Assembly: GCF_014897815.1 (NCBI RefSeq)
Contig: NZ_JABUZG010000053.1
Location: forward strand, 1 to 64,000
DNA: 64,000 nucleotides
Origin: Psychrobacter sp. PG1
GTDB lineage: Bacteria; Pseudomonadota; Gammaproteobacteria; Pseudomonadales; Moraxellaceae
Direction of reading: 5' to 3'
The translations under genes and the position numbers were made by a program. Shown piece after piece: positions 1,240 through 29,946 of this stretch. The notes beneath the pieces are model-generated. The model saw only the letters and a program-made list of their open reading frames with translations, was not told the DNA's origin and did not search any database. Every line of letters begins with the position of its first letter. Position 1 is the stretch's first letter.

Positions 1240-1258
1240 GATATTGATTATCATTAAC
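1240..1258 (+). promoter_or_regulatory. Fur box upstream of the TonB receptor gene
   Basis: GATATTGATTATCATTAAC matches 16 of 19 positions of the classical Fur consensus (GATAATGATAATCATTATC). It lies 34 bp upstream of the preferred receptor start, so iron-dependent repression of the receptor and the downstream permease is likely. Confidence 0.8.
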
Positions 1259-1292
1259 ATTGTTTTTCATTTATGTTACTTTGGATTTATAT

Positions 1293-3722
1293 ATGTTGCC
1301 TAGCAAATCATCTTCCCTTCAATATTATCTCAGTGACCGTCATCTCAGTAAGGATATCAAAACGACTAAAAAATTTAATGCTTTATATATGCCCTCCTTA
1401 TATCTAGCGCCATTACTCAGTTTATATATTCCTACCACAGCATTGGCAGCCCCATATGAAAATAGCCTGTCCTCAAATGTGCAAACCTTTAATGCGGAAC
1501 AGTTTGCTGAGAGGAAAGAGGTCGCTGAACAAAATAATGGTATTAATGAAATGACATCTGATGACATGCCTACTGTCACCCTTGATGCGATTACTGTTAA
1601 TGCTCGAGGTATTGAAGAAGACGAGTTAAAGACCCCCTTTGTGGTTGATACGATTGACGCGCAAGAAATTGAAGACAAGCAATATGTGACGGTAACAGAT
1701 GCTTTGCGAGATGTACCTAGTATAGATATCCACGATGGTGGTAATGTGGGCTACTCGACACTATGGATGCGTGGTACAGGCTCGTTAAGTATTACCAGTC
1801 TTGATGATAATTCTGTTGATGTCCGAATAGATGGTATCAGTAATGGTAAAACGGGATTGGCACGAAACTTAATTGATGTTGAAAAAGTTGAAGTCGCAAA
1901 AGGTCCTCAAGGGACAATATTGGGTTCAAGTGCTGAGGCTGGTGGTATCATTATCAAAACCTTTGACCCATCAGATTATACAGAAGGCAGGGTCAGTGTG
2001 GGTGTGGGTAATCATAATCTTAAGCGTGGCGAGGCGATGCTAAATCTACCTATAACGGATAATGTTTCTTTTCGCATTGCAGGTATGCTGGAGGAACGTG
2101 ATAATAGTCTGATAAAGCGAGAAGATGGCAAACCGCTTAATAAAAAAGACAAACAAGGCATACAAGCCAAGTTGCGTTGGCATGATAATAACGAAGACAA
2201 TAATGTCGTCTTAACCGCTTATCATGATGAGCAAACCAATAATGTTCCTGTCCTACAAAAAGATTTTGATACTTATAAAGTTGCCACGTTTAATCTACCA
2301 CATGAAAATACAAACACCGCTAAGGGCATGAATTTAGTGGTGAATAGTACCGCTTTTGATTTTGCTGATATAGAGTCAAAAACAGGTTATCACCATTATG
2401 ATAGCGATATTCTGCGCCCCTACCTACCGCCAGAGATGTTGTCCTTACAATTCAGCGGATACCGAATTCCAGAAGACCAACAGCCCATATTCAGTGAGGT
2501 TCTTACCCATCCTGATAACAATCGTCAATACTTAGAGGAATCGATTAAACAGGTTTCGCAAGAAATAACATTGGTCTCTAAGCCAGAGAGCGAAGTCCAG
2601 TGGGTCGCAGGACTCTACTTCGCAAACAAAGATAGGGTGTGGAAAAACGATGCCCGAATGAACTTAAATGACATGCCAGATGGGTTATTGAAAAACAGCA
2701 CTCTTGGTAGTGCGAACAACGCAATTACCGATAAAACATTTGATACTCAGACGAAAGCCATATTTGGTGAAATAACGTATCCTGCGACCGAAAGTCTAGA
2801 TGTGATAGCAGGGCTACGTTTGGCAAATGAAGAGCAAACACACGACGCCGTTTGGCAAGGCAATGATAATAACCCATTGGGTAATGATGTAAAAAGTGGC
2901 AGTAAAACGCTGGAGGACACCGCAACGACGGGACGCTTTGGTTTGAGCTATGCTATAAGTCCTAATTGGCGGGTATATGCGCTACAATCACGCGGTCATA
3001 AGTTCGGTGGGTTTGCCGATTATGACAATAACATGGCTTATGGTAACCCCCTTGCATATTACAAGCCGACGACAATTGATGCCTCTGAGATTGGTACAAA
3101 ATATCGCAGTGCAGACAATCGCTTAAATTTGGGGTTGGCACTTTATCGTAACAAAATGAAAGACGACCATATGAGCGTAACAGCCTCACCTCCTGAATAT
3201 AAAAGTGAAACGTTCAACGTTGATAGCCGTAGTCAAGGTATCGAGCTATCCGCAGATTGGCGAATAACCAATAATTGGCAGATAAAAACCCAACTTGCCT
3301 ACACCGATGCAAAGGTCACTGATGCTAGCGAAGTACCACCACCCGCTAGTCCGGGGATGTTACCGCTAACGGCAGAAGATAACCACATGCCACAAGTGCC
3401 AAAATTCAGTGGCAGTATTGGTATGCAATACAACGATGATTTACTGTTTACATTGCCAGTATTTGGTAAAGCGCAGTGGTTCGCTGATGCAAAATATCGC
3501 TACGTGGGTGACCGTTATGCGCAAGCGTACAATGGTATTGAGCTTGAGAGTTATGGTTTGGTTGACGCTAGTCTAGGACTCACCAGCTACAACCACGAAC
3601 TAAGCATTTGGGGTAAAAACTTAACAGATGAACGCTACGAGCATATAAAAATATATCCGATGAATGTTGGTATATTAGGAACTGATAGAAGCTATGGTCT
3701 TAAATATAGTTATTACTATTAA
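1293..3722 (+). CDS. TonB-dependent ferric-siderophore outer-membrane receptor
   Basis: An 809-residue receptor importing a ferric siderophore across the outer membrane using TonB energy. The signal sequence has an unusually long N-terminal region and a hydrophobic core (LAPLLSLYIPTTALA) with cleavage expected after TALA. The plug domain begins with a TonB-box-like stretch (TVTLDAITVNA), then TPFVVDTIDAQEIED, DALRDVPSIDI and VEVAKGPQGTILGSSAEAGG. The rest is a 22-strand barrel-type sequence with NLTDERYEH near the end and a terminal aromatic residue. An in-frame upstream ATG at 1260 is rejected because it touches the Fur box; neither start has a strong Shine-Dalgarno. The permease gene starts 29 bp downstream, so the two are probably co-transcribed. 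The ligand is presumably the siderophore made by the adjacent operon. Confidence 0.93.
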   Translation: MLPSKSSSLQYYLSDRHLSKDIKTTKKFNALYMPSLYLAPLLSLYIPTTALAAPYENSLSSNVQTFNAEQFAERKEVAEQNNGINEMTSDDMPTVTLDAITVNARGIEEDELKTPFVVDTIDAQEIEDKQYVTVTDALRDVPSIDIHDGGNVGYSTLWMRGTGSLSITSLDDNSVDVRIDGISNGKTGLARNLIDVEKVEVAKGPQGTILGSSAEAGGIIIKTFDPSDYTEGRVSVGVGNHNLKRGEAMLNLPITDNVSFRIAGMLEERDNSLIKREDGKPLNKKDKQGIQAKLRWHDNNEDNNVVLTAYHDEQTNNVPVLQKDFDTYKVATFNLPHENTNTAKGMNLVVNSTAFDFADIESKTGYHHYDSDILRPYLPPEMLSLQFSGYRIPEDQQPIFSEVLTHPDNNRQYLEESIKQVSQEITLVSKPESEVQWVAGLYFANKDRVWKNDARMNLNDMPDGLLKNSTLGSANNAITDKTFDTQTKAIFGEITYPATESLDVIAGLRLANEEQTHDAVWQGNDNNPLGNDVKSGSKTLEDTATTGRFGLSYAISPNWRVYALQSRGHKFGGFADYDNNMAYGNPLAYYKPTTIDASEIGTKYRSADNRLNLGLALYRNKMKDDHMSVTASPPEYKSETFNVDSRSQGIELSADWRITNNWQIKTQLAYTDAKVTDASEVPPPASPGMLPLTAEDNHMPQVPKFSGSIGMQYNDDLLFTLPVFGKAQWFADAKYRYVGDRYAQAYNGIELESYGLVDASLGLTSYNHELSIWGKNLTDERYEHIKIYPMNVGILGTDRSYGLKYSYYY

Positions 3723-3751
3723 GACTGTCACTACTATTAAGGTAACAACAG

Positions 3752-5020
3752 ATGAAAATATCTTCCAATCGCAAGCCTTGGGTTTTGCTTGCCAGTATTT
3801 ATATCACTCAGTATATCGGGCTGGCTTTTATTTTTGCCTCTTCCGTTGCCATCATGCGTGACATGAAGATGCCATTAAATAAAATTGCTTTATTAAACTT
3901 CATTGCCTTACCGTTATTACTGAAAATACTTTACGCACCGTTTATAGACCTTATTCGACCCTCATTTATGCACAGACAGTTACAAGGGCGTTATCGCAGT
4001 TGGTTACTTATAGCGCAGTTTTTAATGATGATTTTATTGGTTATCATCGGTATGCTAGATATTGCGACACAGTTTAGTCTAATGATAGGATTAATGCTTG
4101 TTTATGCTTTGGCCGTGAGCGTGCAAGATGTTGCGGTAGATGGCCTTGCGAACAAAATCTTTAGTAAAAATGAGCGGCAACGAGCAAACAGTGTGCAGTT
4201 CTCTGGTAATCTTGTGGGTAATATTATTGGTGGTGGCCTGATACTTATGGCATATCCTTGGCTACAATGGCAAGGGTCACTGCTTGTGCTAGCGTTATTA
4301 ACAAGTATCTCATGGTTACAACTGCTGCGTTATGTAGAGCCGACAATAGAGTTACCAGACAATGCTGATACCCGCACAGCCGCTACGCAGTTTGTGCAAA
4401 AGACGTCTTTAACGCGCTCGTTAGTTATCTTATTAGTCGCCATGTGGCAATTTATAAGAAGTAATCTGGCATGGTTTATTTTATTAGTAATTTACCCTGT
4501 CGGATTTAGTGCCGGTTTTACCCTATTGAATCCAATACTGGTGGATGCGCACTGGACGTTTGCAGATATAGGTTTTGTGACTAAAGTATACGGTTCTGTG
4601 ATTGGGGTGATTTCTGCGCTTAGTGCCAGTCTTCTTATTGACAAAATGGGCCGAGTTAAAACATTGCTCGTGTTAACGGTAGCGCAAGCTTTGGTACTGA
4701 TGTTATTTTTACCTCTAAGCTATGGTTACACCAATAAGCTTATGGTATATAGTGCAGTGACCACCTACTTTTTAGTAAACCCTGCACTCATGGCGACTGT
4801 TGCCACAATTGCGATGGATAAAGCCAGCCTAAACTCTGCCAAAGCCACGTTCTTTACCTTGCAACTGGGTACTTTTTCTTTTATGGGCTTTGTTTGTGCA
4901 GGTGTAGCGATGACGGCAGCCAATACGTTTGGCTACAGCAAAGTGCTAATGGCAAGTATCTCTCTCACCCTCATCATTGTCTTATTTATGCGCGCAAAAC
5001 AAACCATGTTTAATAGCTAG
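3752..5020 (+). CDS. MFS siderophore permease, RhtX/FptX type
   Basis: A 422-residue integral membrane protein with about 12 hydrophobic segments and no signal peptide. The opening (PWVLLASIYITQYIGLAFIF) and the short KILYAPFIDL loop are typical of the RhtX/FptX group of single-component inner-membrane siderophore importers, related to AmpG. A start with weak upstream AAGG lies 29 bp after the receptor stop codon, suggesting one iron-regulated transcript. Its likely job is to move the ferric or desferri-siderophore from periplasm to cytoplasm, where the nearby SIP reductase would release iron. No ABC transporter or periplasmic binding protein is present in the locus, which fits this import route. 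Confidence 0.85.
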   Translation: MKISSNRKPWVLLASIYITQYIGLAFIFASSVAIMRDMKMPLNKIALLNFIALPLLLKILYAPFIDLIRPSFMHRQLQGRYRSWLLIAQFLMMILLVIIGMLDIATQFSLMIGLMLVYALAVSVQDVAVDGLANKIFSKNERQRANSVQFSGNLVGNIIGGGLILMAYPWLQWQGSLLVLALLTSISWLQLLRYVEPTIELPDNADTRTAATQFVQKTSLTRSLVILLVAMWQFIRSNLAWFILLVIYPVGFSAGFTLLNPILVDAHWTFADIGFVTKVYGSVIGVISALSASLLIDKMGRVKTLLVLTVAQALVLMLFLPLSYGYTNKLMVYSAVTTYFLVNPALMATVATIAMDKASLNSAKATFFTLQLGTFSFMGFVCAGVAMTAANTFGYSKVLMASISLTLIIVLFMRAKQTMFNS

Positions 5021-5411: not shown

Positions 5412-6572
5412 ATGCCAGCAACCCCCCCCTATACGCCGATAGCAGATATAGATGCCAAGTTAGACATCATCGAGCATCTTAATCAAGACCATATCGAAGA
5501 AGTACAAGCGATTGCAGCGTATTATTACCCCGATTTAGCAATTACAAATCCCCTTATTATAGATATTTATAAAGAAGGGATGCTGATATCAGCACAGGTA
5601 AATAATAAATCCCAAGAGTTGTTTGTCGATTTTAAACTTGAAGGTGATTTAGAAGAACAGGTGCTTTATTTGGCATATACTGCGATGGCGGAGCAAGGTC
5701 GCGATTTAACAGGTAATAAAAAGCATTACTTTGAGGTGATTGGTAAACAAAAATTAACGCCAAACATGACGCGGTTGACGCTACATAGTGAGACGCCGCT
5801 ACCAGAAAATTATGCCGGCTATGCTTATGGAATGATACTAAAAGTACTGAATAAAACACCCCTTCAGCAGACAGTAGCAGACAAGCAGCAAATCACCTCG
5901 CTAACCACCTCCATAAAAGAACAGGTTAATAAACAAGTAAAAAAACGAGGCAATCAAGCATTCTTATGGCTGCTTAAAAAAGTATCTAGCGATAGAAGGC
6001 AAAAGATTGTAAAAACCATCAATAAAGATATTCGTCTGTACACACTACGCTCGGCTTGGAAGAGTAAAAAATCTGATTTTAATAATCAAGGTTATATGGA
6101 TGTGTTCACGCATGGAAATAGTGCAGGTAGCTTATGGATTGAAACAGTAAATTTGGGCGATATTGTTTTTAGTCGTACAGAAACCGATGACAAGCACGCG
6201 CATTTACAGGAGGGGCAAACGGTGTTAATTGCTGATGAAACGGCTTATCCTGCTTTGGCGGGTATTCTGGACTTTTGGCAAAACGATATACCGCCTCATA
6301 TTGTTATCTTAAGTCAACAACCGTTAGAACAAGATTACTTTGACGATAATGAATTTCCGGTAGGAGCGACTATTCATCGTATTGTCAGCCCATATAATCA
6401 ACAAGGGTTAAAAACCCTTGAGATATTAAAAGATATTGAGTCTATAGACGGGGTATGGGGCGCGTTTGAAAGCAAGGCGTGTAAAGTCGTGCGTCATTAT
6501 TTACGTAATGAGCGCCAGTTAACTGGCAAGCAGAACCATATTAAAGGATATTGGAAAGCCACTACTGATTGA
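5412..6572 (+). CDS. Siderophore-interacting protein (ferric-siderophore reductase) with N-terminal DUF2470 domain
   Basis: A 386-residue cytoplasmic flavoprotein. Residues about 15-95 form a DUF2470-like domain (HLNQDHIEEVQAIAAYYYPD). From about residue 105 follows a ViuB/YqjH-type SIP reductase: FAD-binding segment (DIRLYTLRSAW, MDVFTHGNSAGSLW, LGDIVF), then the NAD(P)H-side domain (VLIADETAYPALAGILD) and the closing WGAFESKACKVVRHYLR and GYWKA motifs. A Lys-rich insertion (about residues 145-210) lies within the FAD domain. It would reduce imported ferric siderophore to release Fe(II). The gene is convergent with the MATE gene. SIP assignment is firm; the role of the DUF2470 part is unknown. 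Confidence 0.9.
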   Translation: MPATPPYTPIADIDAKLDIIEHLNQDHIEEVQAIAAYYYPDLAITNPLIIDIYKEGMLISAQVNNKSQELFVDFKLEGDLEEQVLYLAYTAMAEQGRDLTGNKKHYFEVIGKQKLTPNMTRLTLHSETPLPENYAGYAYGMILKVLNKTPLQQTVADKQQITSLTTSIKEQVNKQVKKRGNQAFLWLLKKVSSDRRQKIVKTINKDIRLYTLRSAWKSKKSDFNNQGYMDVFTHGNSAGSLWIETVNLGDIVFSRTETDDKHAHLQEGQTVLIADETAYPALAGILDFWQNDIPPHIVILSQQPLEQDYFDDNEFPVGATIHRIVSPYNQQGLKTLEILKDIESIDGVWGAFESKACKVVRHYLRNERQLTGKQNHIKGYWKATTD

Positions 6573-6576
6573 TATG

Positions 6577-6608
6577 GCTAGGCGGCTAGTCCAGCCTAGC
6601 TGCCTAGC
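6577..6608. terminator. Convergent hairpin between SIP and MATE genes
   Basis: A stem of GCTAGGCGGCTAG and CTAGCTGCCTAGC (13 pairs counting one G-U) with a six-base loop lies where the two genes converge and includes the MATE stop codon. There is no clear T-run on either strand, so it is only a probable terminator. Confidence 0.5.
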
Positions 6609-7993
6609 TGTATATGTTTAAACTTTCTTCGGCATACTATGGCAAGAACAAATGACGACACCGCCAATCCCACTACCATTAATAACCATATGTCTTCAAC
6701 GCGCAGTCTCATTATCCAATTAAATTTAATAGAGAGGATAACGACGGGAACAATAAATAGCCAATAATTGATAAGTATCACCAATAAGGGTTTTACGAAA
6801 TCTTCAAAACCTCGTAAAACACCACTGATGAGCATTTGCATGGCACTAAAAAATTGAAAAGCAGCGCCATATGTCATCAGAATGGTGGCTATCTCTTTTA
6901 CGCCATCGTCATTGGTAAAATAGCCCACTATCTTATCATCGTAAACGACTAATAAGGCGGCCATAATCGTTGCATACACCACCGTAACCAACAGGGTGAA
7001 TATTGCCACTTTTGCAGCGTTTGACGCATCCGCTATACCATTAAAGTAGGCGATGCGAATCGTTGTTGCATTCGCAATAGCCACAGGAATCATAAACGCA
7101 ATCAAGGTGATGTTTAAAACAATTTGATGCGCAGCAATGTGCCGAATACTGTAGGTGGAGATTAAAAAAGCCAACACGGTTAACGCCATGACTTCGAGTA
7201 AAAAAGAAAAACCAATGGGCAATCCTTCTATGAGTAAGCGTTTACTGTCTTGTTTGTCTACAGAAACATTATTACCAGAGACCGAATGACCAGCACTGGC
7301 AACCCAAGGTAACTGTTGAGTAATCTGTTTTTTTAAGAACATACAAGCGATATACCCACTTACTGCCGTCGCCAGTCCGCATCCCATCCCACCCATTTCA
7401 GGAAACCCTAAAAAACCATGGATAAAAATAACATTCAGACAAGCGTTCATAATAACCAGTAGAAAGCTCACTAAAACAATAGGTTTTAGGGTACTATTCC
7501 CTTCACCCGTTATTCTATACATAAGCATATGAATAATACCTGGCATTCCAAGGCCAACAAACATTAAATAATTTCTCGTGATTAAACTGACCTCGTCATC
7601 TTGAATAAACCAAGTGACTGAAAAGGCTAATAGTTCAATGATTACGAATCCAATAATAGACAGCCAAAAAGCAACGTTTTTGGCATGTAAAAAGAGCTTT
7701 TGAGCCGCTATATGTGTATTGCCGTGATAAATGTTATTGGCATCGGCGTTATTGGTATCAACAGTATTGTTAAGGGCGGCAAATTTAGGAACAAAGACAT
7801 ATAACACACCCGTAAAAAAAAGAAAGACAGGTGTCCATATGGCACTGCCTAAACCCACGGCGGCTAGATCTTTATAATTATATTGTCCAGCAACCATCGC
7901 ATCAACGATACCGAGCGAGGCTTGGCAAAGCTGTATGAGTATCAATGGAATAGCAAGCTTTAAAATAGGTTTAATGATGGTAGAGTTTGTCAT
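6596..7993 (-). CDS. MATE-family efflux protein, probable siderophore exporter
   Basis: A 465-residue membrane protein with about 12 hydrophobic segments in two homologous halves. MATE features are the N-terminal PILKLAIPLILIQLCQASLGIVD and the mid-protein ISTYSIRHIAAHQIVLNI. MATE proteins export small molecules by Na+ or H+ antiport. It is the last gene of the leftward biosynthetic operon, 111 bp after the thioesterase gene. Putative siderophore exporters are often placed this way, so export of the finished siderophore is the likely role; this is inference. A His/Asn-rich loop near residues 80-95 is unusual but may be only lineage-specific. Confidence 0.85.
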   Translation of the reverse strand: MTNSTIIKPILKLAIPLILIQLCQASLGIVDAMVAGQYNYKDLAAVGLGSAIWTPVFLFFTGVLYVFVPKFAALNNTVDTNNADANNIYHGNTHIAAQKLFLHAKNVAFWLSIIGFVIIELLAFSVTWFIQDDEVSLITRNYLMFVGLGMPGIIHMLMYRITGEGNSTLKPIVLVSFLLVIMNACLNVIFIHGFLGFPEMGGMGCGLATAVSGYIACMFLKKQITQQLPWVASAGHSVSGNNVSVDKQDSKRLLIEGLPIGFSFLLEVMALTVLAFLISTYSIRHIAAHQIVLNITLIAFMIPVAIANATTIRIAYFNGIADASNAAKVAIFTLLVTVVYATIMAALLVVYDDKIVGYFTNDDGVKEIATILMTYGAAFQFFSAMQMLISGVLRGFEDFVKPLLVILINYWLFIVPVVILSIKFNWIMRLRVEDIWLLMVVGLAVSSFVLAIVCRRKFKHIQLGS

Positions 7994-8104: not shown

Positions 8105-8836
8105 TCAGATGGTAGTTGTTGTATACTCAATGGCATAAGTGACTATTTGTAGCATCTCTTTGCACACCTCACGATTGTTAAAATAAAAATGACCGCCTGC
8201 AAAAACGTAACTTCCTAGCCAGTTTTCACTATAAGCTGACCAAGCATCCATTTTGGTCTTGTCAGCTATATCCGTGTCGTCATCGCCATATAATGCCAGT
8301 AGCGGCACGGTGGTCTTCTTTGGATTGTCTGCTAATAATCTATCGTTCACTAAAAAATCATTACGCAAAATACGTAAAAAGAAAGATAAGGTGTTTTTGT
8401 TGTCAAGAATTGCTTTTGGTGTGCCGTTATAATGCGTTAATGCCTCAATTAACTCCTCATCCGTTAATAAATGCTTGAGTGGCATATGCCGAGTATGCTG
8501 ATAGCTTGGTCTACCACTGACGATAATGAGACTAAGAAAGGGGCGAGTAGACGCATCTAAATAATTAATGACTTTCCAGAGTAACGCTGCTCCCAAACTA
8601 TGCCCAAAAAGTGCAAAAGAGTGCTGTCTTTTGCTAACGTCTCGATTGATATTTTCAGCGATTTCTTGGGCAAGAACGTCTGGACAATCGCATAATGGCG
8701 TGCTCATTTTAATACCATGGCCTGGATATTCTACTGGTATCACATTAAGATAGCTTGGGAGTAGTTTTTGCCAAGCGCTATACAACATAGAGCTACTCCC
8801 TGCTGGCGGTAAACAATACATATCATATGTCGTCAT
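8105..8836 (-). CDS. Type II (external) thioesterase of the NRPS system
   Basis: A 243-residue alpha/beta hydrolase. It opens with the type II thioesterase signature (CLPPAGSSSMLYSAW), has the nucleophile elbow GHSLG with Ser80, the acid in LALYGDDD, and the catalytic His in GGHFYFNN. Such enzymes hydrolyse misprimed or stalled acyl groups from carrier domains. None of the three NRPS proteins has a C-terminal thioesterase, so this protein could also help with release, although a condensation domain using the hydroxylated amine as nucleophile is the expected release mode. A good ribosome site (AAAGGAAAG) precedes the ATG. The acyltransferase gene ends 42 bp upstream. Confidence 0.9.
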   Translation of the reverse strand: MTTYDMYCLPPAGSSSMLYSAWQKLLPSYLNVIPVEYPGHGIKMSTPLCDCPDVLAQEIAENINRDVSKRQHSFALFGHSLGAALLWKVINYLDASTRPFLSLIIVSGRPSYQHTRHMPLKHLLTDEELIEALTHYNGTPKAILDNKNTLSFFLRILRNDFLVNDRLLADNPKKTTVPLLALYGDDDTDIADKTKMDAWSAYSENWLGSYVFAGGHFYFNNREVCKEMLQIVTYAIEYTTTTI

Positions 8837-8878: not shown

Positions 8879-9472
8879 TTAAGCGCTTACCGGTGACGTA
8901 TTTTGAGCGTTATAGAAAGTGTCCCGGTAACAAAAATATAACATTGCCACTTTTTCGGGCATATCAAGCTCACCTTGAGGCTCATAAGACAAAGCGTTCA
9001 AGATCTTCGACATGGGTTTATTCTTGCTATCAGGCTCTACGATAACTTTACGAGCGCGACTGTTTTGGAATATAAAATCTGTTAGGCACCGTATAATGGG
9101 TTTAGCATAGCCTTTACCGACGACGTCCGTTTCTCCTAGTAGGATATGAAAGCCCATATCTGCCGCCTCAATATCATAATATAAACGGACACGATCTCGG
9201 GCCGCTTCATACACTTCAATGTACCCCACAGCCCTACCATTTATCGTTATGAAATAAAGCCTTTGATGGTCGTCTACAATCATCTTTTCATAGTAGGCCA
9301 GTAGTTTAGGCATCGGCTCATTTAATTGCCATTGCGGGATAACGTGTTCTTTATGCATCCAGTCATATATCAGTGGCATATCGTCGGGGTATTGAATTTT
9401 CCTTAGTCCATATACTGTGTCCGCTATTTTTTTTTCATAATTATTTGGCAATATTTGCGATAGGGTTGGCAT
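8879..9472 (-). CDS. GNAT-type siderophore N-acyltransferase (hydroxyamine acetyltransferase)
   Basis: A 197-residue protein of the IucB/AlcB/MbtK acetyltransferase group (Acetyltransf_8). Visible family features are HVIPQWQL near the N-terminus, GYIEVYEAARDRV, GFHILLGE, GKGYAKPIIRCLTDFIF and a C-terminal KVAMLYFCYRDTF. Members transfer an acyl group from acyl-CoA to the hydroxylamine made by the partner monooxygenase, giving a hydroxamate. The monooxygenase gene is 26 bp upstream and a diamine-forming decarboxylase is encoded nearby, so the product is probably N-acetyl-N-hydroxyputrescine, as in the fimsbactin pathway. The acyl donor cannot be read from the sequence; succinyl-CoA is an alternative. 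Confidence 0.88.
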   Translation of the reverse strand: MPTLSQILPNNYEKKIADTVYGLRKIQYPDDMPLIYDWMHKEHVIPQWQLNEPMPKLLAYYEKMIVDDHQRLYFITINGRAVGYIEVYEAARDRVRLYYDIEAADMGFHILLGETDVVGKGYAKPIIRCLTDFIFQNSRARKVIVEPDSKNKPMSKILNALSYEPQGELDMPEKVAMLYFCYRDTFYNAQNTSPVSA

Positions 9473-21834: not shown

Positions 21835-22599
21835 TCATATACCCAGCGTGGCCCCACCATCTATAACGATGTCATGCATGGTTATATGGGCAGCGGTAGG
21901 CTCAAGTAAGAAAATGATAGCGTTAACAATATCTTTAGGATTAGCGAGTTTTTTGAGCGGAATACCCACTTTATAATTAGCGTGATCACCATTAATGGTA
22001 TAGCGTATATTTGCCTCACTATCTAAACAGTTATCCCAAAGACTTGTTAACATAGGCGTCATCGTAGAGCCAGGCGAGACTATATTCACCCGAACATTGT
22101 ATTTCGCCAATTCAAGACCAATGGCTTTCGCAAAATGGGTAAGCGCAGCTTTTGTCGCACCGTACGCGGCCATGCCTACTCGCGGTGTTCTTCCAGCGTT
22201 TGAGGAAACAATAACAATACTGCCTTGTTGTTGTTGTCTAAAATGCGGTATTAAATAGTACATAAAATAAAAAACAGCATCGACATTTATGGCAAACATC
22301 TCCCTCCATTGTTGGCTAGTGATATCCTCATGCTTATCGGTGTACATAACGCCAGCCACATAAGCAACATATAGCGGTGGGTGCGTGGGTAACAGCTGTT
22401 CACATAATGCGCCAATTTGCTCTTCACTGGTAACATCACAAAGATATAAGGACAGTTTAGGATGCTTAATGATTTTTGATATGTTATCTAAATCTCTATC
22501 CAAACCTATTACGTCGTAACCTTTAGCAAGCATAGATTCAGTTAACGCCAGTCCGATACCTTGATTTACCCCAACGATCCATATAATTTGTTGTGTCAT
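21835..22599 (-). CDS. entA: 2,3-dihydro-2,3-dihydroxybenzoate dehydrogenase
   Basis: A 254-residue short-chain dehydrogenase that oxidises 2,3-dihydro-DHB to 2,3-dihydroxybenzoate with NAD+. It has the nucleotide-binding glycine motif as GVNQGIGLAL, YVAGV in place of NNAG, the catalytic Ser in IVIVSSNAG, and YGATKAALTHF with catalytic Tyr and Lys. The C-terminus (DIVIDGGATLGI) is typical of EntA. The frame is open upstream to a GTG at 22,608, but the ATG at 22,599 is preferred. It sits between isochorismatase (25 bp upstream) and the first NRPS gene, and its presence argues for DHB rather than salicylate. Confidence 0.93.
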   Translation of the reverse strand: MTQQIIWIVGVNQGIGLALTESMLAKGYDVIGLDRDLDNISKIIKHPKLSLYLCDVTSEEQIGALCEQLLPTHPPLYVAYVAGVMYTDKHEDITSQQWREMFAINVDAVFYFMYYLIPHFRQQQQGSIVIVSSNAGRTPRVGMAAYGATKAALTHFAKAIGLELAKYNVRVNIVSPGSTMTPMLTSLWDNCLDSEANIRYTINGDHANYKVGIPLKKLANPKDIVNAIIFLLEPTAAHITMHDIVIDGGATLGI

Positions 22600-22624
22600 A
22601 ACAGTCACTTATTGATATCTATTT

Positions 22625-23260
22625 CTACGAACGAATAATTTCAGCTGTGGTTACTACTTTTCCTAGATTGCGTTGCACATAATTTAAAGCGAAAATATGG
22701 TCTTCTCTAGAAAAGTCAGCGACGGCATCTTCGACAACAAAAGGCTTTATATTGTCCATAAATGCCACAGAAGCAGTTTGTAATACGCCGATATGCGCAT
22801 ATACACCGCAAATAATGATTTGGTCTTTTTTCTGGTTTTGCATATCCTCGCCTAGCTGAGTTCTATAAAAGGCGCTGTAACGCCATTTTTCAAGAATAAT
22901 ATCATTGTCTTCTGGCGCTATTGAGGCAGTGATATTTTCTTGACCTAATTTATCGGGTTCTGTCAACCCTTTTCCCCACATATCTGTTAATAAGCCTCTA
23001 TCTTCTGTAGATTGTTTTTGGGGCTGCGCTGAATAATACACTTGAACATTATGGTCTTTCGCCCATTGTTTTAACTGTTTTATATGCTCAATAACAGAGG
23101 CAATAAGCACGCTATTAGCACCATAGAAGCTTAAGAAATAGTCTTGCATGTCATGAATCAATAAGACTGTTTTATTGGCATCTATGGTCCAATTCACTTT
23201 TGCTGTTGGATACTCATGTTGCTGGATAAGCTCGTAATTATTTATTTTGCTAATGCTCAT
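22625..23260 (-). CDS. Isochorismatase (2,3-dihydro-DHB synthase), stand-alone
   Basis: A 211-residue isochorismatase-fold enzyme that removes pyruvate from isochorismate. Key elements are the catalytic Asp in LIHDMQDYFLSFY, YYSAQPQKQSTEDRGLLTDMWG, the Lys in ILEKWRYSAFYRT and the GVYAHIGVLQTA segment typical of EntB rather than general cysteine hydrolases. EntB-type proteins are usually about 285 residues because they end in an aryl carrier domain. Here the protein stops after the hydrolase domain, and the carrier is found at the N-terminus of the NRPS two genes downstream. The gene lies between isochorismate synthase and the DHB dehydrogenase. Confidence 0.93.
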   Translation of the reverse strand: MSISKINNYELIQQHEYPTAKVNWTIDANKTVLLIHDMQDYFLSFYGANSVLIASVIEHIKQLKQWAKDHNVQVYYSAQPQKQSTEDRGLLTDMWGKGLTEPDKLGQENITASIAPEDNDIILEKWRYSAFYRTQLGEDMQNQKKDQIIICGVYAHIGVLQTASVAFMDNIKPFVVEDAVADFSREDHIFALNYVQRNLGKVVTTAEIIRS

Positions 23261-23389: not shown

Positions 23390-24595
23390 TTATTCATGTA
23401 ATGTAAACACATTTAACATCGTTTCTAGCTTTTTTTGGGTTTCTATCCATTCTGAGTCTGGACACGAGCCTGCAACAACACCAGCACCTGCATATAAAGA
23501 CATATGATTACTCTCTAAAAGCCCACAGCGAATGGTCACTAACCATTCACCGTTGCCTTGCGTGTCCATCCAGCCAATCAAACCGCTATAAAATCCACGC
23601 TCATACGTCTCTTTGCTTTGAATGAACTGTTTTGCCTGCTCTGTCGGGGTGCCACATATCGCGGGGGTGGGGTGGAGGTTTAATGCTAAAGTAAGCGCAT
23701 CGGGGGCGTTGTGTCGCAAGGTGCCATTGAGCACTGTGGAGAGGTGGAGCATGGTGGAGGTTTCTAAAATTTCTGGTGTTTCTGTCACCGTCAAGCTAGA
23801 ACAATAGGGCGCTAAATGGCTCACTACTTTATCGACAACCAAACTGTGCTCGCGTTGATCTTTCGGCGAACTTTTTAGGATTGTTTTATTTTTTAGGTCT
23901 TGTTTGAGGTTTTTGGTCAGTGCCAACGACCCCGCCAAGGGGTTACTTTTTACGCGGTGCCCTTCTTTAGATAATAATAATTCCGGACTTACCCCGACGA
24001 TTGTTTCAGTATCCGATACCGGCACCGCAAAGGTATAAGCTTGCGGGTTTTTTTCAACCAAGATTTTAACCAAACTCGCAACGTTTGGCGCACTGTCTAT
24101 TTCTAACTGCAACATACGCGATAGGACAACTTTACTTAACGCGGTTTTTTCAATGGTGTCCAAAGCGTGTTCTACCAGTTCTTTGAAATCTTGTTCGGAC
24201 ACCGAGCTTTTAACTTGGTGAACGTTAAATTCTTGTGGCTTACTATCAAATAAGTCATCGAGACAGCTTTTTGTGGATTCAGTGTAAAAGCTTAAACTGG
24301 AGTTTTGCTGCGTATCAAAAGGAATAGCACCCATTAGGATAGGGTTTGGGTTGCCTGCTGCTATTAACCTAGAAAACTCATGATCAATGTGGTTTTTTAG
24401 GATGGCAGTATCTTTTGCTGGCGTTGCTATACAGGACACAAGTTGACTGGCGTGAATTTGGTATTTATCGGCAATAAAATAAGCGTCATTTTGGGTAGAT
24501 ATTTTATTATTTCTATAGTTGCTGGGGGCGTATGTGCTGTTTTGGGATGTTTCTTTAACAAAACGGCTTCTTTCTTCTTGAAGAGTATTAAACAT
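23390..24595 (-). CDS. entC: Isochorismate synthase
   Basis: A 401-residue chorismate-utilising enzyme, first of the leftward operon, converting chorismate to isochorismate. The conserved C-terminal half is visible: VVLSRMLQLE, ETIVGVSPELLLSKEG, SNPLAGSLALT, KDQREHSLVVDKV, HLSTVLNGTLR, LHPTPAICGTPTEQA, ERGFYSGLIGWMD and AGAGVVAGSCPDSEW. Length and motifs fit EntC/DhbC. The lysine-containing VVLSR region and the PTPAICG/E-rich motif indicate isochorismate rather than anthranilate chemistry. Transcription probably begins near the Fur palindrome about 365 bp upstream, leaving a long leader. Confidence 0.94.
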   Translation of the reverse strand: MFNTLQEERSRFVKETSQNSTYAPSNYRNNKISTQNDAYFIADKYQIHASQLVSCIATPAKDTAILKNHIDHEFSRLIAAGNPNPILMGAIPFDTQQNSSLSFYTESTKSCLDDLFDSKPQEFNVHQVKSSVSEQDFKELVEHALDTIEKTALSKVVLSRMLQLEIDSAPNVASLVKILVEKNPQAYTFAVPVSDTETIVGVSPELLLSKEGHRVKSNPLAGSLALTKNLKQDLKNKTILKSSPKDQREHSLVVDKVVSHLAPYCSSLTVTETPEILETSTMLHLSTVLNGTLRHNAPDALTLALNLHPTPAICGTPTEQAKQFIQSKETYERGFYSGLIGWMDTQGNGEWLVTIRCGLLESNHMSLYAGAGVVAGSCPDSEWIETQKKLETMLNVFTLHE

Positions 24596-25320
24596 TGTTA
24601 TGCCTTTTTTAAATTGTAGTTATTATCTTTTCTTTATTTTTCTAAAACAGATAAAATTGCATCAGAGTTAAGTAAAGAGTTTCTTAACCAGTGAGCAAAC
24701 ATATCTAGATAAGTCTACTAAAAAAATTCCGATGTTTTTTTAAACATTCCCAATCATACGTCGTCACTTTTTTCGTATTTTTTAATACTTAAGTTGAACG
24801 TCTCGTTTATTTATTGGTTATATTTTTTACCATGTACAAAAATGAACTATTGTTCATTAAAAATACTCTCATTTAATTTATTGTGGACGCAGACGATAGT
24901 AACGACTGCAGGTTTTTTAAGCATTCGGGGATTATATATACAAAAGATTTTTATTTCAATGTTAATGATAATAATTATCATTAACATTACAATTATCATT
25001 AACAAATAGCAACATAGACCTAGAATAATCAGCTGTCTAGGCAGACACTCATATATAATAATTATTATTGTAACTTTATGTAAAAATGTGTATAAAATAA
25101 ATTTTTTAATAGTTATGAATATAAATTTAGTTGTCAATAACATATAAGGTATTGATATTTAATAATATTTTGCATAGTAAGAATATTTTTTTTGGGTGAT
25201 TTTTTAAAATCTTAGATATTTTCGGTTTTAAGCAGAACCGCCAATAGGTTAGCGTTATTATGAGGTTTAAATGGTTTTATCATTAAAAAAAGCGATGAAT
25301 AGCAGGAAAAATTAATGTTG
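24596..25320. other. Regulatory intergenic region upstream of entC
   Basis: About 725 bp of very AT-rich DNA upstream of the leftward operon. Apart from the Fur-site cluster at 24,961-25,003 I see no gene or strong secondary structure. The small open frames here cross the Fur sites, are AT-composed and have no ribosome sites, so they are not credible. Confidence 0.6.
24961..25003. promoter_or_regulatory. Overlapping Fur boxes of the siderophore biosynthesis operon
   Basis: A perfect 12-1-12 palindrome with half-site GTTAATGATAAT occupies 24,961-24,985 and contains the 6-1-6 Fur core GATAAT-A-ATTATC. A second partial site (AATTATCATTAAC) follows immediately to 25,003. This arrangement favours cooperative binding of more than one Fur dimer. 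Confidence 0.85.
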
Positions 25321-25352
25321 CTAGGGCGTGTCCCTAATTGGAAAAAGCGCAT

Positions 25353-25389
25353 ATATCTTCTAAAATAAAGCATGCATTTTAGAAGATAT
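25353..25389 (+). promoter_or_regulatory. Hairpin covering the transposase start codon
   Basis: A perfect 14-bp stem (ATATCTTCTAAAAT and its inverse, nine-base loop) ends on the AT of the first transposase ATG. In mRNA it would hide the initiation region, which fits the known habit of IS elements to limit transposase translation from read-through transcripts. Confidence 0.55.
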
Positions 25390-26148
25390 GAGGCAAATAA
25401 CTAAGATGGCCAGACAAGCATTAACCGATAACCTTTGGGAACAGTTACAGGTAACTATGGCACAGCATGGTTGCTATCAAAAAGAAAAGAATCGCGAGGT
25501 TATGGAAGCTATTCTCTGGAAACTCCGTACAGGCGCTCCTTGGCGTGACATACCTAAAGAGTTATGCCCGTGGAAAACTGCTTATAATCGTTTTAATCGA
25601 TGGTCAAAGACTGGTTTGTGGCAGAATTTTTTTTGGCTTACGAAAGGAAGTTGATACGGAATAAGTATTCATCGACGGAAGTTATATACGGTGTCATCAG
25701 CATGCAAGTGGAGCTCGGCTTGGTGAATGTCGAGCAATTGGACAAAGCCGTGGCGGAGCAACTACAAAGATACATTTATCCTGTGATGCCGATGGATATC
25801 CGCTCGATTTTAAAATCACTGGGGGTGAAGTCCATGACAGTCAAGTTGCAGGTGAATTGATTAAAATGATTGGACAAGCTGATTGCTGACAAAGGCTATG
25901 ATTCAGAGTCTATTAGAGACAAAGCTCTAAGCTGCGATATGATACCCGTCATTCATAAAAGAAAGAATGCCAAACACCCTAATCCAGAGTTTGATAGCTA
26001 TTTGTATAAACTGCGTCATCTTGTTGAAAATATGTTCGCTAGACTTAAGCATTTCCGCAGTATAGCCACTCGCTATGAAAAGTTAGCTCGTAACTTTAAG
26101 TCAATGCTTTACTTGGCCTGCACTATCATTCATTGCAAAATAAATTGA
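25388..26148 (+). pseudogene. IS5-family transposase, broken
   Basis: The transposase is spread over three reading frames. Frame one (25,388-25,654) gives the N-terminal part (LWKLRTGAPWRDIPKEL). A run of eight T's at 25,627-25,634 could be a slippery site. The next part (FIDGSYIRCHQHASGAR, first catalytic Asp) lies in another frame just behind an in-frame TAA at 25,662-25,664. The last part (ADKGYDSES and HLVENMFARLKHFR, giving the second Asp and the Glu) is in the third frame from about 25,880. IS427-type elements often use one programmed frameshift, but one shift cannot join these pieces, so the gene appears dead. Confidence 0.8.
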
Positions 26149-26186
26149 GGACACGCCCTAGTTACTTTACTCAGATAATAGGTTAT

Positions 26187-26205
26187 GATAATGATAATTA
26201 TTATC
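26187..26205 (+). promoter_or_regulatory. Near-consensus Fur box
   Basis: GATAATGATAATTATTATC matches the classical 19-bp Fur consensus at 18 of 19 positions. It is about 640 bp upstream of the decarboxylase gene and 26 bp from the right end of the IS element. Confidence 0.88.
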
Positions 26206-26841
26206 ATTTTATAGTTAGTGATTTATTTTTAGGCTATGGATGGTAGAAACGTTCTTATGAGGTATAAAAATCTACTATGTAACGACTCATCGCTAAGAAT
26301 TACACCGTTATAAACGGGGTAAACTGCAGGTTATTTTTAAGAGCAGGCAGCATACAAACCATAAAAATATGCCAAAATAATCATTAGGGGTAAGTGAAAA
26401 ACGTACGAGAGCATACTGGGTTAAAGAGCCAAAGAACGCTAACAAAAGGAAGAAGAAAAGGCTTTATATTTATAAACTTATATTTGTAGATATAAAGCCT
26501 TTTAGCAAGTAATCGGATGAGGCGACAACATACATATTCCAAATATGTATCGCTAATGACCACAGATATTTACGATTAAAACCTTATGCTATGGTCGTAG
26601 TGATGCGAACCAAAAAACAGTGTTCTAAACTAAAAAATGAGTGGAATGAAGGGGTGGACTGTTATGAATAGTCTTATATGGATTGTTTTAAAACACGTAT
26701 TATTAAATGAGGGATAACACCCGATATGTATTGCTTAAGCCATGGATATAATAAATATAACTTTATATAAGATCCAAATAAACCATACGCCACACATAAA
26801 ATGATAAACCAAATAAAATGATATTTTATTTAAAGGGAATA
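26206..26841 (+). other. Long leader or intergenic region upstream of the decarboxylase gene
   Basis: About 635 bp between a Fur box and the decarboxylase start with no convincing protein gene. It contains a strong hairpin at 26,456-26,503. It is either a long 5' leader or holds a separate small transcript ending at the hairpin. Confidence 0.5.
26456..26503. terminator. Strong hairpin downstream of the Fur box
   Basis: A perfect 14-bp stem, AAAAGGCTTTATAT with ATATAAAGCCTTTT, and a 20-base loop. The 3' arm ends in four T's on the plus strand, and TTTTCTTCTT follows on the minus strand, so it may terminate from either side. Confidence 0.5.
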
Positions 26842-26844
26842 ATG

Positions 26845-28017
26845 ATGTTTGATATTAATACGTATTTACAACATGAAAAATGGAATAAAATACTACGACT
26901 CTCTGAGACCAAATCGTCGCCTTTTTTGGTGGTAGATTTGGACTGTATCCAATCTAACTATATGGATATGGTCGGGCTATTTCCTAGATTTAATATCTAT
27001 TATGCCATGAAAGCAAACCCTGCCCATGAAGTGATTAATCTGCTTAAGAAGATGGGATCGTATTTCGATTGTGCGTCTACTTATGAATTGGATAAAGTTT
27101 TAGAAAGCGGCGTACACCCCGATAAGATATCGTATGGCAATACGATAAAAAAGATAGAAGACATAGCATATGCGCATAGCAAAGGGGTGAGATTGTATGT
27201 GACCGATTCCGATGCCGATATAGAGAACATCGCCAAGTTTGCGCCAAACGCTAAAGTATTTGTACGTATCTTAGTCGATGGAGGGGACACCGCAGAGTGG
27301 CCCCTGTCGCGTAAATTTGGCTGCCACCCTACCATGGCCGTGCATCTTTTAATCAAAGCAAAGAAGCTCGGCTTAGTGCCTTATGGGGTTTCGTTTCATG
27401 TCGGCAGCCAGCAGCAAAATATTTCGTCATGGAATGAGGCGCTGGTTAAGGTTCAAGCGATATTTAAGCAATTACAAGAGAAAAACATTACGCTAAATAT
27501 GATTAATCTTGGGGGTAGGTTTCCTGCTCGGTACAAAAAATATATTAACCCCCTGCAAGATTACGCTAACAGTATTAATCGTTATATAGATGAGTACTTT
27601 CCCAACTGTGAAGACCTAGAATTGGTTTTGGAACCAGGGCGCTCGCTCGTCGGTAACTCTGGGGTATTGGTCAGCGAAATTGTCCTCATATCGCATAAAT
27701 CGCTCAGCGATAAAGCGCGTTGGGTGTTTACTGACGTTGGATTGTTTCAGGGGTTATTCGAAACCTTGGGCGAGGCGATTAAATATCCCATCTATACCAC
27801 CGCTATGGCAAGCTCAAAGCAATGTGAAAGCGTGATTTTAGCAGGGCCGACGTGTGATTCCGCCGATATCATGTATGAAGAAACCATGTATCAATTACCC
27901 GTAGAGAATAAAATAGGGGACAAGCTGTATTGGCTAACTACAGGCGCTTACACCTATTCTTATTCCTCGGTTGAGTTCAATGGTTTTCCGCCGCTCAAAG
28001 TTCATTACTTAGAATAA
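26845..28017 (+). CDS. PLP-dependent ornithine/diamino-acid decarboxylase (fold type III)
   Basis: A 390-residue alanine-racemase-fold decarboxylase of the eukaryotic-type ornithine decarboxylase group. The PLP lysine is Lys56 in YYAMKANPA; other family features are FDCASTYELDKVL, GVSFHVGSQQQ, NLGGRFPA, LEPGRSLVG, the Cys in LAGPTCDSADIMYE, and TGAYTYSYSSVEFNGF. It should make putrescine from ornithine for the N-hydroxylase, as FbsJ does in fimsbactin synthesis; lysine to cadaverine is an alternative. The start at 26,845 has AAAGGGA six bases upstream; ATG 26,842 and 26,818 are alternatives. It is transcribed away from the main operon with a DAHP synthase gene 88 bp downstream. Confidence 0.9.
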   Translation: MFDINTYLQHEKWNKILRLSETKSSPFLVVDLDCIQSNYMDMVGLFPRFNIYYAMKANPAHEVINLLKKMGSYFDCASTYELDKVLESGVHPDKISYGNTIKKIEDIAYAHSKGVRLYVTDSDADIENIAKFAPNAKVFVRILVDGGDTAEWPLSRKFGCHPTMAVHLLIKAKKLGLVPYGVSFHVGSQQQNISSWNEALVKVQAIFKQLQEKNITLNMINLGGRFPARYKKYINPLQDYANSINRYIDEYFPNCEDLELVLEPGRSLVGNSGVLVSEIVLISHKSLSDKARWVFTDVGLFQGLFETLGEAIKYPIYTTAMASSKQCESVILAGPTCDSADIMYEETMYQLPVENKIGDKLYWLTTGAYTYSYSSVEFNGFPPLKVHYLE

Positions 28018-29179: not shown

Positions 29180-29226
29180 GGTTATAGTTAAAGATAGCTC
29201 ATATACATTTTATGTACGCGCTTCTC

Positions 29227-29946
29227 TTATTTGATTATAAACGTAATAATATGGTTGCCATATACTTTATATCCCCCACTAAAATTGTTAGAAACAGCGA
29301 GTTGAATATCTTCAGATACTATTATCTCGAATGTTTGTTTTTTATAATCAACTTTTGTTAGCATCGCCGCTTCAAAACCTACATAGCATTTTATATGACT
29401 ATATATTGTCTTAAACAAAGCTTCTTTTGCAGAAAAGACCAGCGTACAGAAAAATTCATATGATATGTGATCTTTATGATAAAAAGAGCGGTCGTTGCCA
29501 CATAATATCGCAGTTGATAGGTTTTTCGCTGTCTTTAAGCTCATTATCTTCTCACAGTCCACACCAACTCCATAAATAAAAGACGATTTTTTAGCTATTG
29601 CCGCAGACATTTCATTAGTGTGTGTTATTGAAACGTTATAGTTTGAATAACATATCGGTTCTCTACGCGCACCATTAGTCACTGAGAGTATAGGTGACCC
29701 TTCTTTGAATAAAGCCATTGCTGCTACAATTCGACCTGCTAAAAACTCTGCCCGTCTCTTGTTTATCGACTGTTTGATATTATTTGGCTCGGAAAAAGGC
29801 AACTCGTTATATAAGGAGGGGTTAAAATGCGAAGAATTATAGACACATACCTGTATGACGCAAGAAAGTGTCGCGATGTCATGTTTCACTGAATAAATAA
29901 AAGATTGTTGAATAAAATCGGATAGCTTTAAAAAATCTGTACTCAT
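29227..29946 (-). CDS. entD: 4'-phosphopantetheinyl transferase, EntD type
   Basis: A 239-residue Sfp/EntD-type enzyme that activates ArCP and PCP domains with the phosphopantetheine arm of CoA. Seen are RRAEFLAGRIVA and VTNGARREP in the N-terminal half, NVSITHTNEM, the Mg-binding GVDCEKI and the signature FSAKEALFKT. This fits the EntD subgroup. The expected clients are Ser33 of the first NRPS, that protein's C-terminal PCP, and Ser544 of the C-PCP-C protein; the AngR-like protein has no usable serine. The gene is single and opposed to the decarboxylase-DAHP synthase pair. No Fur box is visible upstream. Confidence 0.92.
   Translation of the reverse strand: MSTDFLKLSDFIQQSFIYSVKHDIATLSCVIQVCVYNSSHFNPSLYNELPFSEPNNIKQSINKRRAEFLAGRIVAAMALFKEGSPILSVTNGARREPICYSNYNVSITHTNEMSAAIAKKSSFIYGVGVDCEKIMSLKTAKNLSTAILCGNDRSFYHKDHISYEFFCTLVFSAKEALFKTIYSHIKCYVGFEAAMLTKVDYKKQTFEIIVSEDIQLAVSNNFSGGYKVYGNHIITFIIK

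What the first reader, a model, noticed from the sequence alone, without database searches (positions are those of the whole stretch)
1240..29946. Fimsbactin-like mixed catecholate/hydroxamate siderophore locus in a probable Psychrobacter
One locus holds DHB synthesis (entC, isochorismatase, entA, entE), three NRPSs, and genes for N-acylated N-hydroxydiamine (decarboxylase, N-hydroxylase, GNAT), plus receptor, importer, reductase, exporter, phosphopantetheinyl transferase and a DAHP synthase. The enzyme set matches the fimsbactin logic known from Acinetobacter, but gene order, promoter layout and NRPS details differ. The product may be a new analogue.
Basis: partly seen in the sequence, partly recalled or inferred. 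Interest (0 to 1): 0.75.

Follow-up and report, generated by a model that had tools for sequence, protein, structure and literature searches.

The report
Fimsbactin-type siderophore island in Psychrobacter
This Psychrobacter stretch carries a gene set that is predicted to make, export and re-import a fimsbactin-type iron-scavenging molecule; four other Psychrobacter genomes carry its import genes without its assembly genes, so those species are likely to take up a molecule that they do not make.

Summary
The genus is Psychrobacter. The NRPSs are ArCP-Cy-T, Cy-A-(degenerate T) and C-T-C, the fimsbactin (fbs) layout, and entC to the N-hydroxylase is collinear with Acinetobacter baylyi. Core synthesis proteins are only 30-58% identical to the named loci. 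Three Fur-like boxes mark likely promoters.

(1) The adenylation pocket has Leu where all 35 relatives aligned have Gln, so the serine assignment is open. (2) The decarboxylase groups with the genus's own housekeeping copy, not with FbsJ; this strain's copy has a substitution in the cofactor loop. (3) The receptor resembles those of Pseudomonas japonica and Oligella clusters (40-46%), not Acinetobacter's (25%). (4) In a sister genome the cluster lies in a 48.7-kb tRNA-Asp island. (5) Of 105 Psychrobacter genomes, 6 have the receptor but only 2 have synthesis. Three end at the same base inside the N-hydroxylase; a fourth has a diverged AraC-receptor-MFS-SIP quartet. In two of these four no condensation domain was found.

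Verdict: a new variant of a known kind. The product is untested.

The parts
84..1151 (+). AraC-family regulator (counterpart of fbsA)
   Evidence: HTH_18; AraC genes also head the Acinetobacter loci (24-32%) and the uptake-only quartet of G108
1240..1258 (.). Fur-like box before the receptor, 17 of 19; same letters in G091, G115, G025 and G001
   Evidence: the consensus is recalled
1260..3722 (+). TonB-dependent receptor (role of fbsN)
   Evidence: 45-46% to P. japonica, 40-41% to Oligella; best match in the A. baylyi genome 25%
3752..5020 (+). MFS permease, RhtX/FptX-like (role of fbsO), likely inner-membrane importer
   Evidence: 52% to the MFS of the A. baylyi locus (partial) and of the P. 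japonica locus
5412..6572 (+). siderophore-interacting protein, likely ferric reductase
   Evidence: SIP; 45-52% to P. arctica, Marinomonas, P. japonica, 42% to Oligella
6596..7993 (-). MATE transporter, likely exporter (role of fbsQ)
8105..8836 (-). type II thioesterase (role of fbsM)
8879..9472 (-). GNAT acyltransferase (fbsK), predicted to acetylate hydroxyputrescine
   Evidence: 45-50% to ten named loci
9499..10821 (-). diamine N-hydroxylase (fbsI)
   Evidence: best solved match 7us3, putrescine N-hydroxylase, 530 bits; alignment
9944..9944 (.). point at which the three truncated relatives (G115, G025, G001) lose homology
10905..12524 (-). DHB-AMP ligase (fbsH)
   Evidence: 545 bits, below the 724-bit cut-off of TIGR02275; 53-58% to ten named loci
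12537..15752 (-). NRPS C-T-C (fbsG); condensation motifs HHxxxDD and YHxxxDE, conserved in the 25 aligned
15994..19248 (-). NRPS Cy-A-(degenerate T) (fbsF); Cy motif DGLTFD at residues 145-150; pocket read DMFSILIIWK; carrier-like tail LGIRPKQ without the LGGxS serine
19245..21791 (-). NRPS ArCP-Cy-(A remnant)-T (fbsE); Cy motif DMISVD at residues 240-245
21835..22608 (-). entA, 2,3-dihydro-DHB dehydrogenase (fbsD)
22625..23260 (-). isochorismatase without carrier domain (fbsC)
23390..24595 (-). entC, isochorismate synthase (fbsB)
24961..24985 (.). Fur-like box before entC, 17 of 19
25313..26169 (+). IS4/5-family insertion with broken transposase; ends ...CTAGGGCGTGTCC / GGACACGCCCTAG...
   Evidence: Pfam DUF4096 on the copy in G091
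26187..26211 (.). Fur-like box before the decarboxylase-DAHP synthase pair, 18 of 19
26818..28017 (+). ornithine-type decarboxylase (role of fbsJ), sister of the housekeeping paralogue at G000:C55
28106..29179 (+). DAHP synthase, likely raises chorismate supply
29227..29946 (-). phosphopantetheinyl transferase (role of fbsL)
41186..41262 (-). tRNA-Asp, attachment site of the island; a partial copy (at least 26 nt) lies at 41135

Best explanation
Window 84-29946 holds the enzyme set and core gene order of the fimsbactin (fbs) cluster and is predicted to make, export and re-import an iron-scavenging molecule built from two 2,3-dihydroxybenzoates, two amino acids (probably serine) and one N-acetyl-N-hydroxyputrescine. 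Proposed working. DAHP synthase, entC, isochorismatase and entA would supply DHB. DhbE would load DHB on the ArCP of E. The only amino-acid A domain (in F) would load the carriers of E and G in trans, because F's own carrier lacks its serine. The two Cy domains would make the DHB-oxazoline. The two C domains of G would add the second acyl-serine unit and the hydroxamate amine made by decarboxylase, N-hydroxylase and GNAT. MATE would export the product; receptor, MFS and SIP would bring the ferric form in and release iron. Shown: genes, domains, motifs, Fur-like boxes, collinearity, island, truncated relatives. Inferred: substrates, order of condensation, product, transport.
For: Domains. N-hydroxylase nearest, among solved structures, to putrescine N-hydroxylase 7us3. 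Eleven named loci, ten of them at 37-41% for G and 53-58% for the DHB ligase. Core collinear in all eight loci that hold the whole run entC to N-hydroxylase, A. baylyi among them. Only NRPS locus in the genome. Three Fur-like boxes, none above 14 of 19 elsewhere in 64 kb. Degenerate carrier in F shared with relatives. A nearly identical whole locus in a second Psychrobacter genome, G091 (99%, no internal stop in 18 genes).
Against: Sequence identity to the named loci is modest (core synthesis proteins 30-58%). The A-domain pocket differs at a position that is Gln in 35 of 35 relatives. The receptor's best match in A. baylyi is 25%. Gene trees place the window differently from gene to gene. This strain's decarboxylase has the third glycine of the GGG(F/L)P cofactor loop replaced by arginine; nine loci, G091 and the housekeeping paralogue have glycine there. 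No product was measured. fbsP and fbsQ of Acinetobacter lay outside the stretches compared.
Confidence: 0.85

Rival explanations
1. The product is fimsbactin A itself, not an analogue: the pocket change is tolerated and serine is still used.
For: Nine of ten pocket residues fall within the variation of the family; N-hydroxylase, GNAT and DHB ligase are ordinary members.
Against: The changed residue is one of only 2 departures at 79 columns that are invariant in the 35 relatives, its codon is two or three base changes from a Gln codon, and the 60 bases around it are the same in G091. The receptor belongs to another type.
Confidence: 0.5
2. It is an acinetobactin/anguibactin-type cluster with N-hydroxyhistamine as the amine.
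For: The N-hydroxylase belongs to the same broad family, TIGR04439 (370 bits).
Against: Far below the 700-bit cut-off; a true member exists in the genus, 806 bits in G025. The decarboxylase is of the ornithine/lysine kind; no histidine-type decarboxylase is among the locus genes (the rest of the genome was not searched for one).
Confidence: 0.03
3. In this strain the locus is decaying: the decarboxylase is damaged, an IS sits between the two operons, and the strain makes little or nothing.
For: Gly to Arg in the cofactor loop; IS in the entC-decarboxylase gap.
Against: All 18 frames are open; both Fur-like boxes beside the IS are intact; a housekeeping decarboxylase paralogue with an unsubstituted loop exists at C55 and could supply putrescine; the IS is also in G091.
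Confidence: 0.15
4. The uptake-only genomes are assembly artefacts: the missing synthesis genes exist but were not assembled.
For: In G115 and G001 the contig ends near the break; both are fragmented (about 300 and 420 contigs), and G115 is rated 92% complete.
Against: In G025 the contig continues into transposase and tns genes; the 55 bases beyond the break are the same in all three; none holds the 20-kb synthesis part; no condensation domain was found in G115 or G108; G108's quartet lies inside a 239-kb contig.
Confidence: 0.07

Closest known systems
Fimsbactin cluster fbsA-Q of Acinetobacter baylyi / A. baumannii
   Same: Same enzyme kinds, same three-protein NRPS layout, collinear core B-C-D-E-F-G-H-I (gene list read in PMC10483418, passages). 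Degenerate carrier at the end of F.
   Different: Core proteins of the A. baylyi locus are 36-56% identical; J moved to a separate Fur-boxed pair with a DAHP synthase and derived from the host's own decarboxylase; other receptor type; A-domain pocket Leu for Gln; tRNA-Asp island instead of the Tn7-family Tn6171/Tn6552 of A. baumannii (PMC8190619, passages).
fbs-like loci in Pseudomonas japonica, Marinomonas sp. SBI8L, Pseudoalteromonas arctica, Oligella ureolytica (products not known to me)
   Same: P. japonica shares the run TBDR-MFS-TEII-entC...GNAT-SIP-MATE without a decarboxylase in it, and the receptor type.
   Different: Uptake genes arranged differently; Gln kept in the P. japonica pocket.
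HGT Group 39 in three cheese Psychrobacter (eLife 2017, PMC5526665, passages)
   [quoted passage not shown] may be this locus.
   Different: The passages seen give no genes or coordinates for it; the supplement was not available, so identity with this locus is untested.
Acinetobactin cluster (bas/bau)
   Same: DHB, Cy chemistry, a related N-hydroxylase.
   Different: Histamine N-monooxygenase cut-off not met; no histidine-type decarboxylase among the locus genes; G025 holds a true acinetobactin-type locus, and G001 a homologous one.

Membership tests
fimsbactin-type (fbs) cluster | DHB supply and loading: entC, isochorismatase, entA, DHB-AMP ligase | tested here: met
fimsbactin-type (fbs) cluster | three NRPS proteins with ArCP-Cy-T, Cy-A, C-T-C | tested here: met
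   DxxxxD motifs in E and F, two C domains in G
fimsbactin-type (fbs) cluster | N-acetyl-N-hydroxyputrescine genes I, J, K | tested here: met
   I 54-56% and K 45-50% to ten named loci, 45% and 35% to Oligella; J present but of other descent
fimsbactin-type (fbs) cluster | serine-type A-domain pocket | tested here: inconclusive
   9 of 10 positions within family variation; 301-equivalent Leu against Gln in 35 of 35; position mapping rests on recalled motif anchors
fimsbactin-type (fbs) cluster | collinear core gene order | tested here: met
   entC to N-hydroxylase in 8 of 11 loci; P. arctica and Marinomonas have E (P. arctica also F) on the opposite strand, Oligella is cut by its contig end
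fimsbactin-type (fbs) cluster | orthologous receptor fbsN | tested here: not met
   best match in the A. baylyi genome 25%; a variable part of the locus, not of the synthesis pathway
fimsbactin-type (fbs) cluster | product is a fimsbactin | not testable with these tools
   needs mass spectrometry
Tn6171/Tn6552-type carrier | tns genes flanking the cluster | tested here: not met
   none of 15 proteins tested from the left flank of G091 matches a Tns family; two match Phage_integrase; the repeats are those of a tRNA-Asp island. Small frames were not all tested. tns genes stand near the truncated copy of G025
acinetobactin-type cluster | histamine N-monooxygenase TIGR04439 above cut-off | tested here: not met
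   370 against 700 bits

The most novel reading that the evidence does not exclude
Psychrobacter runs a producer-and-thief economy around a siderophore of its own: the A domain of F has been re-tuned (Leu for an otherwise invariant Gln) to an amino acid other than serine, giving a new fimsbactin analogue with a matching receptor, and the AraC-receptor-MFS-SIP quartet is an autonomous, Fur-boxed theft cassette that outnumbers complete clusters two to one (4 against 2 of 105 genomes), made at least once by an IS-linked loss of the synthesis half.
Probability: 0.2. Interest if true: 0.7.

Novelty: new variant of a known kind. Interest (0 to 1): 0.5.

Why it matters
It extends fimsbactin-type synthesis to a cold-adapted genus, gives a sequence-level candidate for changed amino-acid choice in this NRPS family, and supplies a natural set in one genus: two full clusters, three copies that end at the same base, and one diverged uptake-only quartet. 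That makes siderophore piracy testable by simple cross-feeding. Uptake-only gene sets and 'cheating' are already discussed for cheese bacteria (PMC5526665 and PMC12096840, passages), so the idea is not new; the shared break point and the kept Fur-like box are a clean case of it.

Tried and rejected
Acinetobactin/anguibactin type: rejected on the N-hydroxylase cut-off and decarboxylase kind.

Plasmid or phage carriage: no near match of window 1260-13000 in 72,556 plasmid records; tblastn of G gave about 28% identity in the listed records that cover 80% or more of it in one piece; no relative confirmed in viral contigs.

In-frame stop codons in the N-hydroxylase homologues of many Psychrobacter: in the five stop-bearing copies that I read (L035-L039) they lie before the start of the protein; the others were not read.

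Rfam at the gathering threshold: only the two tRNAs in window 1-42000.

The G025 remnant as cargo of a comM-inserted Tn7-like element: tns genes and a Mg-chelatase C-terminal piece (ComM by my reading) are there, but the far side is a mosaic of IS pieces, so no transposon end is shown.

Selection on the kept uptake genes: pN/pS against the window is 0.11-0.27 for receptor, MFS and SIP, and 0.52 for GNAT. Against a simple reading: counts are small, G025 and G001 are nearly identical there, TEII is unchanged, and MATE (0.29) and the N-hydroxylase stub show no stops or marked change. The loss may be too recent to tell.

As a baseline for the pocket change: G departs at 12 of 154 invariant columns, N-hydroxylase 8 of 115, GNAT 2 of 36, DHB ligase 26 of 223, decarboxylase 30 of 173, E 47 of 227 (with 24, 11, 11, 10, 9 and 7 relatives; P. 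japonica and Marinomonas left out for E), against 2 of 79 for the A domain with 35 relatives. Departures are thus common in the locus; the point is where this one lies.
Full report
OBSERVATION. Open frames and family searches give, from left to right: AraC regulator 84-1151, TonB receptor 1260-3722, MFS 3752-5020, SIP reductase 5412-6572 (all +); MATE, type II thioesterase, GNAT, N-hydroxylase, DHB-AMP ligase, three NRPS proteins, entA, isochorismatase, entC (all -, 6596-24595); then decarboxylase and DAHP synthase (+, 26818-29179) and PPTase (-, 29227-29946). It is the only locus with condensation domains in the 3.49-Mb genome. A neighbouring protein is 98% identical to one named Psychrobacter immobilis, and the other named rows listed are Psychrobacter too.

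REGULATION. A 19-base Fur consensus (recalled) was slid along 64 kb. Scores of 16-18 occur only before the receptor (1240-1258), before entC (24961-24985) and before the decarboxylase (26187-26211); elsewhere nothing exceeds 14; ten shuffles within 200-base blocks gave none at 16 or more. Iron control is thus likely, in three transcription units.

ASSEMBLY LINE. E is ArCP-Cy-T with a remnant of an A domain between Cy and T; F is Cy-A with a carrier-like tail; G is C-T-C. Both Cy domains keep a DxxxxD motif. The tail of F reads LGIRPKQ where an active carrier reads LGGxS; none of the eight relatives aligned has an LGGxS there either. So the one amino-acid A domain probably loads the carriers of E and G in trans. 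Tandem Cy logic by analogy with vibriobactin and fimsbactin is stated in PMC12005286 (passages); the in-vitro work on fimsbactin itself I know only by recall.

RELATIVES. Searching with G gave 25 proteins besides the window's own at 37-41% over at least 92% of its length, then a gap to 28% over 41%. A scan of named genomes gave 11 loci: seven Acinetobacter (A. baylyi, A. rudis, A. pollinis and four without species name), Pseudomonas japonica, Marinomonas, Pseudoalteromonas arctica, and Oligella ureolytica at 30%. Against these loci, Oligella left out, the window proteins are: DHB ligase 53-58%, N-hydroxylase 54-56%, isochorismatase 54-56%, decarboxylase 50-55%, entA 49-53%, GNAT 45-50%, entC 42-48%, F 39-45%, G 37-41%, E 30-37% with partial hits included. 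Eight loci hold the whole run entC to N-hydroxylase and all eight are collinear with the window; P. arctica and Marinomonas have E (and, in P. arctica, F) on the other strand. In midpoint-rooted trees the window is a deep branch of its own in G and the N-hydroxylase, but it joins P. japonica for GNAT and Marinomonas/P. arctica for the DHB ligase, so the genes may not share one history. By family, each fbs gene of the list in PMC10483418 (passages) has a counterpart; fbsP is printed there as 'Side-tail fibre protein', which I take from recall to be the SIP gene.

WHAT IS DIFFERENT. (a) Pocket. With positions anchored on recalled A-domain motifs, the window reads DMFSILIIWK. All 35 relatives aligned (the 31 that rank first, plus two Vibrio, one Rhizobium and one A. 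larvae protein) have Gln at the 301-equivalent (F residue 737); the window alone has Leu. It is one of 2 departures at 79 columns invariant in the others; the 60 bases around it are the same in G091. Because Gln is kept in sets that I believe use serine and threonine alike, its loss could change or loosen the choice; that is inference. (b) Decarboxylase. It is 61% identical to a housekeeping paralogue at C55 and 50-55% to the FbsJ proteins; a tree joins it to the paralogue with support 1.0. This strain's copy has Arg for the third Gly of the GGGFP loop; G091, nine loci and the paralogue have Gly. If that copy is inactive, the paralogue could supply putrescine. (c) Receptor. 45-46% to P. japonica's, 40-41% to Oligella's; the best match in A. 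baylyi is 25%, shorter pieces up to 31%.

ISLAND. In G091 (two contigs) the whole locus recurs at 99% (window 1-30646) with no internal stop in 18 genes. There it lies between a copy of at least 45 nt of the tRNA-Asp 3' part (931009) and the intact tRNA-Asp (979679), with a 52-base exact direct repeat beside each: an island of about 48.7 kb with two Phage_integrase proteins and a protein matching MkoC of the Mokosh defence set. Contig C71 of the window's genome matches that left flank (96.7% and 99.5% over 14.5 and 5.0 kb, 92% over a further 0.4 kb), so the window's left neighbour is probably C71. The window has a further 10 kb before tRNA-Asp. In A. baumannii the cluster rides on Tn7-family Tn6171/Tn6552 (PMC8190619, passages); none of 15 left-flank proteins of G091 tested matches a Tns family.

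UPTAKE-ONLY RELATIVES. Of 105 Psychrobacter genomes (own included), the N-hydroxylase search rings in 34: two whole near-identical copies (window, G091), three with only residues 292-440 at 98-99% (G115, G025, G001; the last two also have a 37% homologue), and 29 with other homologues only. The three keep the stretch from window 1093 (G115), 55 (G025) or 1155 (G001) to 9944, at 98.6-99.5%, that is receptor, MFS, SIP, MATE, thioesterase, GNAT and an N-hydroxylase stub. They lose homology at the same base, and the 55 bases beyond are the same in all three. In G115 and G025 the start of a transposase gene follows (HTH_Tnp_1); G025 has an IS3-family transposase just beyond, while the contigs of G115 and G001 end there. 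None holds the synthesis part: window 10700-30640 is matched only by IS copies, the decarboxylase paralogue, short repeats, a 71-81% stretch at its right end and, in G025 and G001, 66-72% pieces of their other NRPS locus. Receptor, MFS and SIP have no internal stop in all three and the Fur-like box before the receptor is unchanged. The receptor at E of 1e-60 or better rings in 6 of 105: these five and G108. G108 has AraC-receptor-MFS-SIP in the same order at 29, 43, 55 and 46% (Pfam agrees), with Fur-like boxes (16 of 19) before receptor and SIP, no other cluster gene found in 19 kb, no N-hydroxylase match and no condensation domain found. G115 has none found either, at 92% completeness. G025 has an acinetobactin-type locus instead, and G001 a homologous one. 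The likely reading is that these four take up a siderophore made by others; which one is untested.

NOVELTY. No paper in the library holds both 'fimsbactin' and 'Psychrobacter'. But PMC5526665 (passages) reports an HGT group with siderophore acquisition and biosynthesis genes in three cheese Psychrobacter; it may be this locus, and its gene list could not be opened. Piracy by uptake-only gene sets is a known idea (same paper; PMC12096840, passages). So: a new variant of a known kind, with a specific hint of changed chemistry and a clear uptake-only series.

Noticed in passing
window 5037-5203: A short repeat with ends CTAGGGCGTGTC / GACATGCCCTAG; the stretch folds strongly (z -5.1). 46 matches in this genome (self and reversed halves included, about 40 places), and 87 of 105 Psychrobacter genomes match the DNA query that holds it, the short matches listed lying mostly here. 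Its ends resemble those of the IS at 25313-26169, so it looks like a MITE mobilised by that IS.
   Followed up: partly
L083 6838-10362 (G091), and the matching stretch of G000:C71: A 1174-aa helicase-like protein matching MkoC (Mokosh anti-phage set) lies on the same tRNA-Asp island as the siderophore cluster.
   Followed up: partly
window 31519-36128: A DUF2345 protein, small unknown genes and a GAD-like/Tdi1-type immunity protein, suggesting a type VI secretion effector-immunity cargo between cluster and tRNA-Asp.
   Followed up: no
window 36378-40848: DUF305 proteins and a CusS-like sensor kinase with response regulator (likely metal response) in the 10 kb that does not stand beside the cluster in G091.
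   Followed up: no
L088 and L089 (G025:C134): An acinetobactin-type locus: histamine N-monooxygenase over its cut-off (806 bits), DHB-AMP ligase and isochorismate synthase over theirs, ABC transporter genes and a TonB receptor; G001:C122 is homologous.
   Followed up: partly
L055 355-5788 (G025:C173): TnsA-, TnsB-, TniB- and TniQ-like genes beside a Mg-chelatase C-terminal piece (ComM by my reading), near the truncated siderophore locus.
   Followed up: partly
L056 2013-2144 (G001): An insertion of about 130 bp between MATE and thioesterase genes that the other copies lack.
   Followed up: no
window 41135: A second partial copy (at least 26 nt) of tRNA-Asp just before the real one, pointing to repeated insertions at this tRNA.
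   Followed up: no
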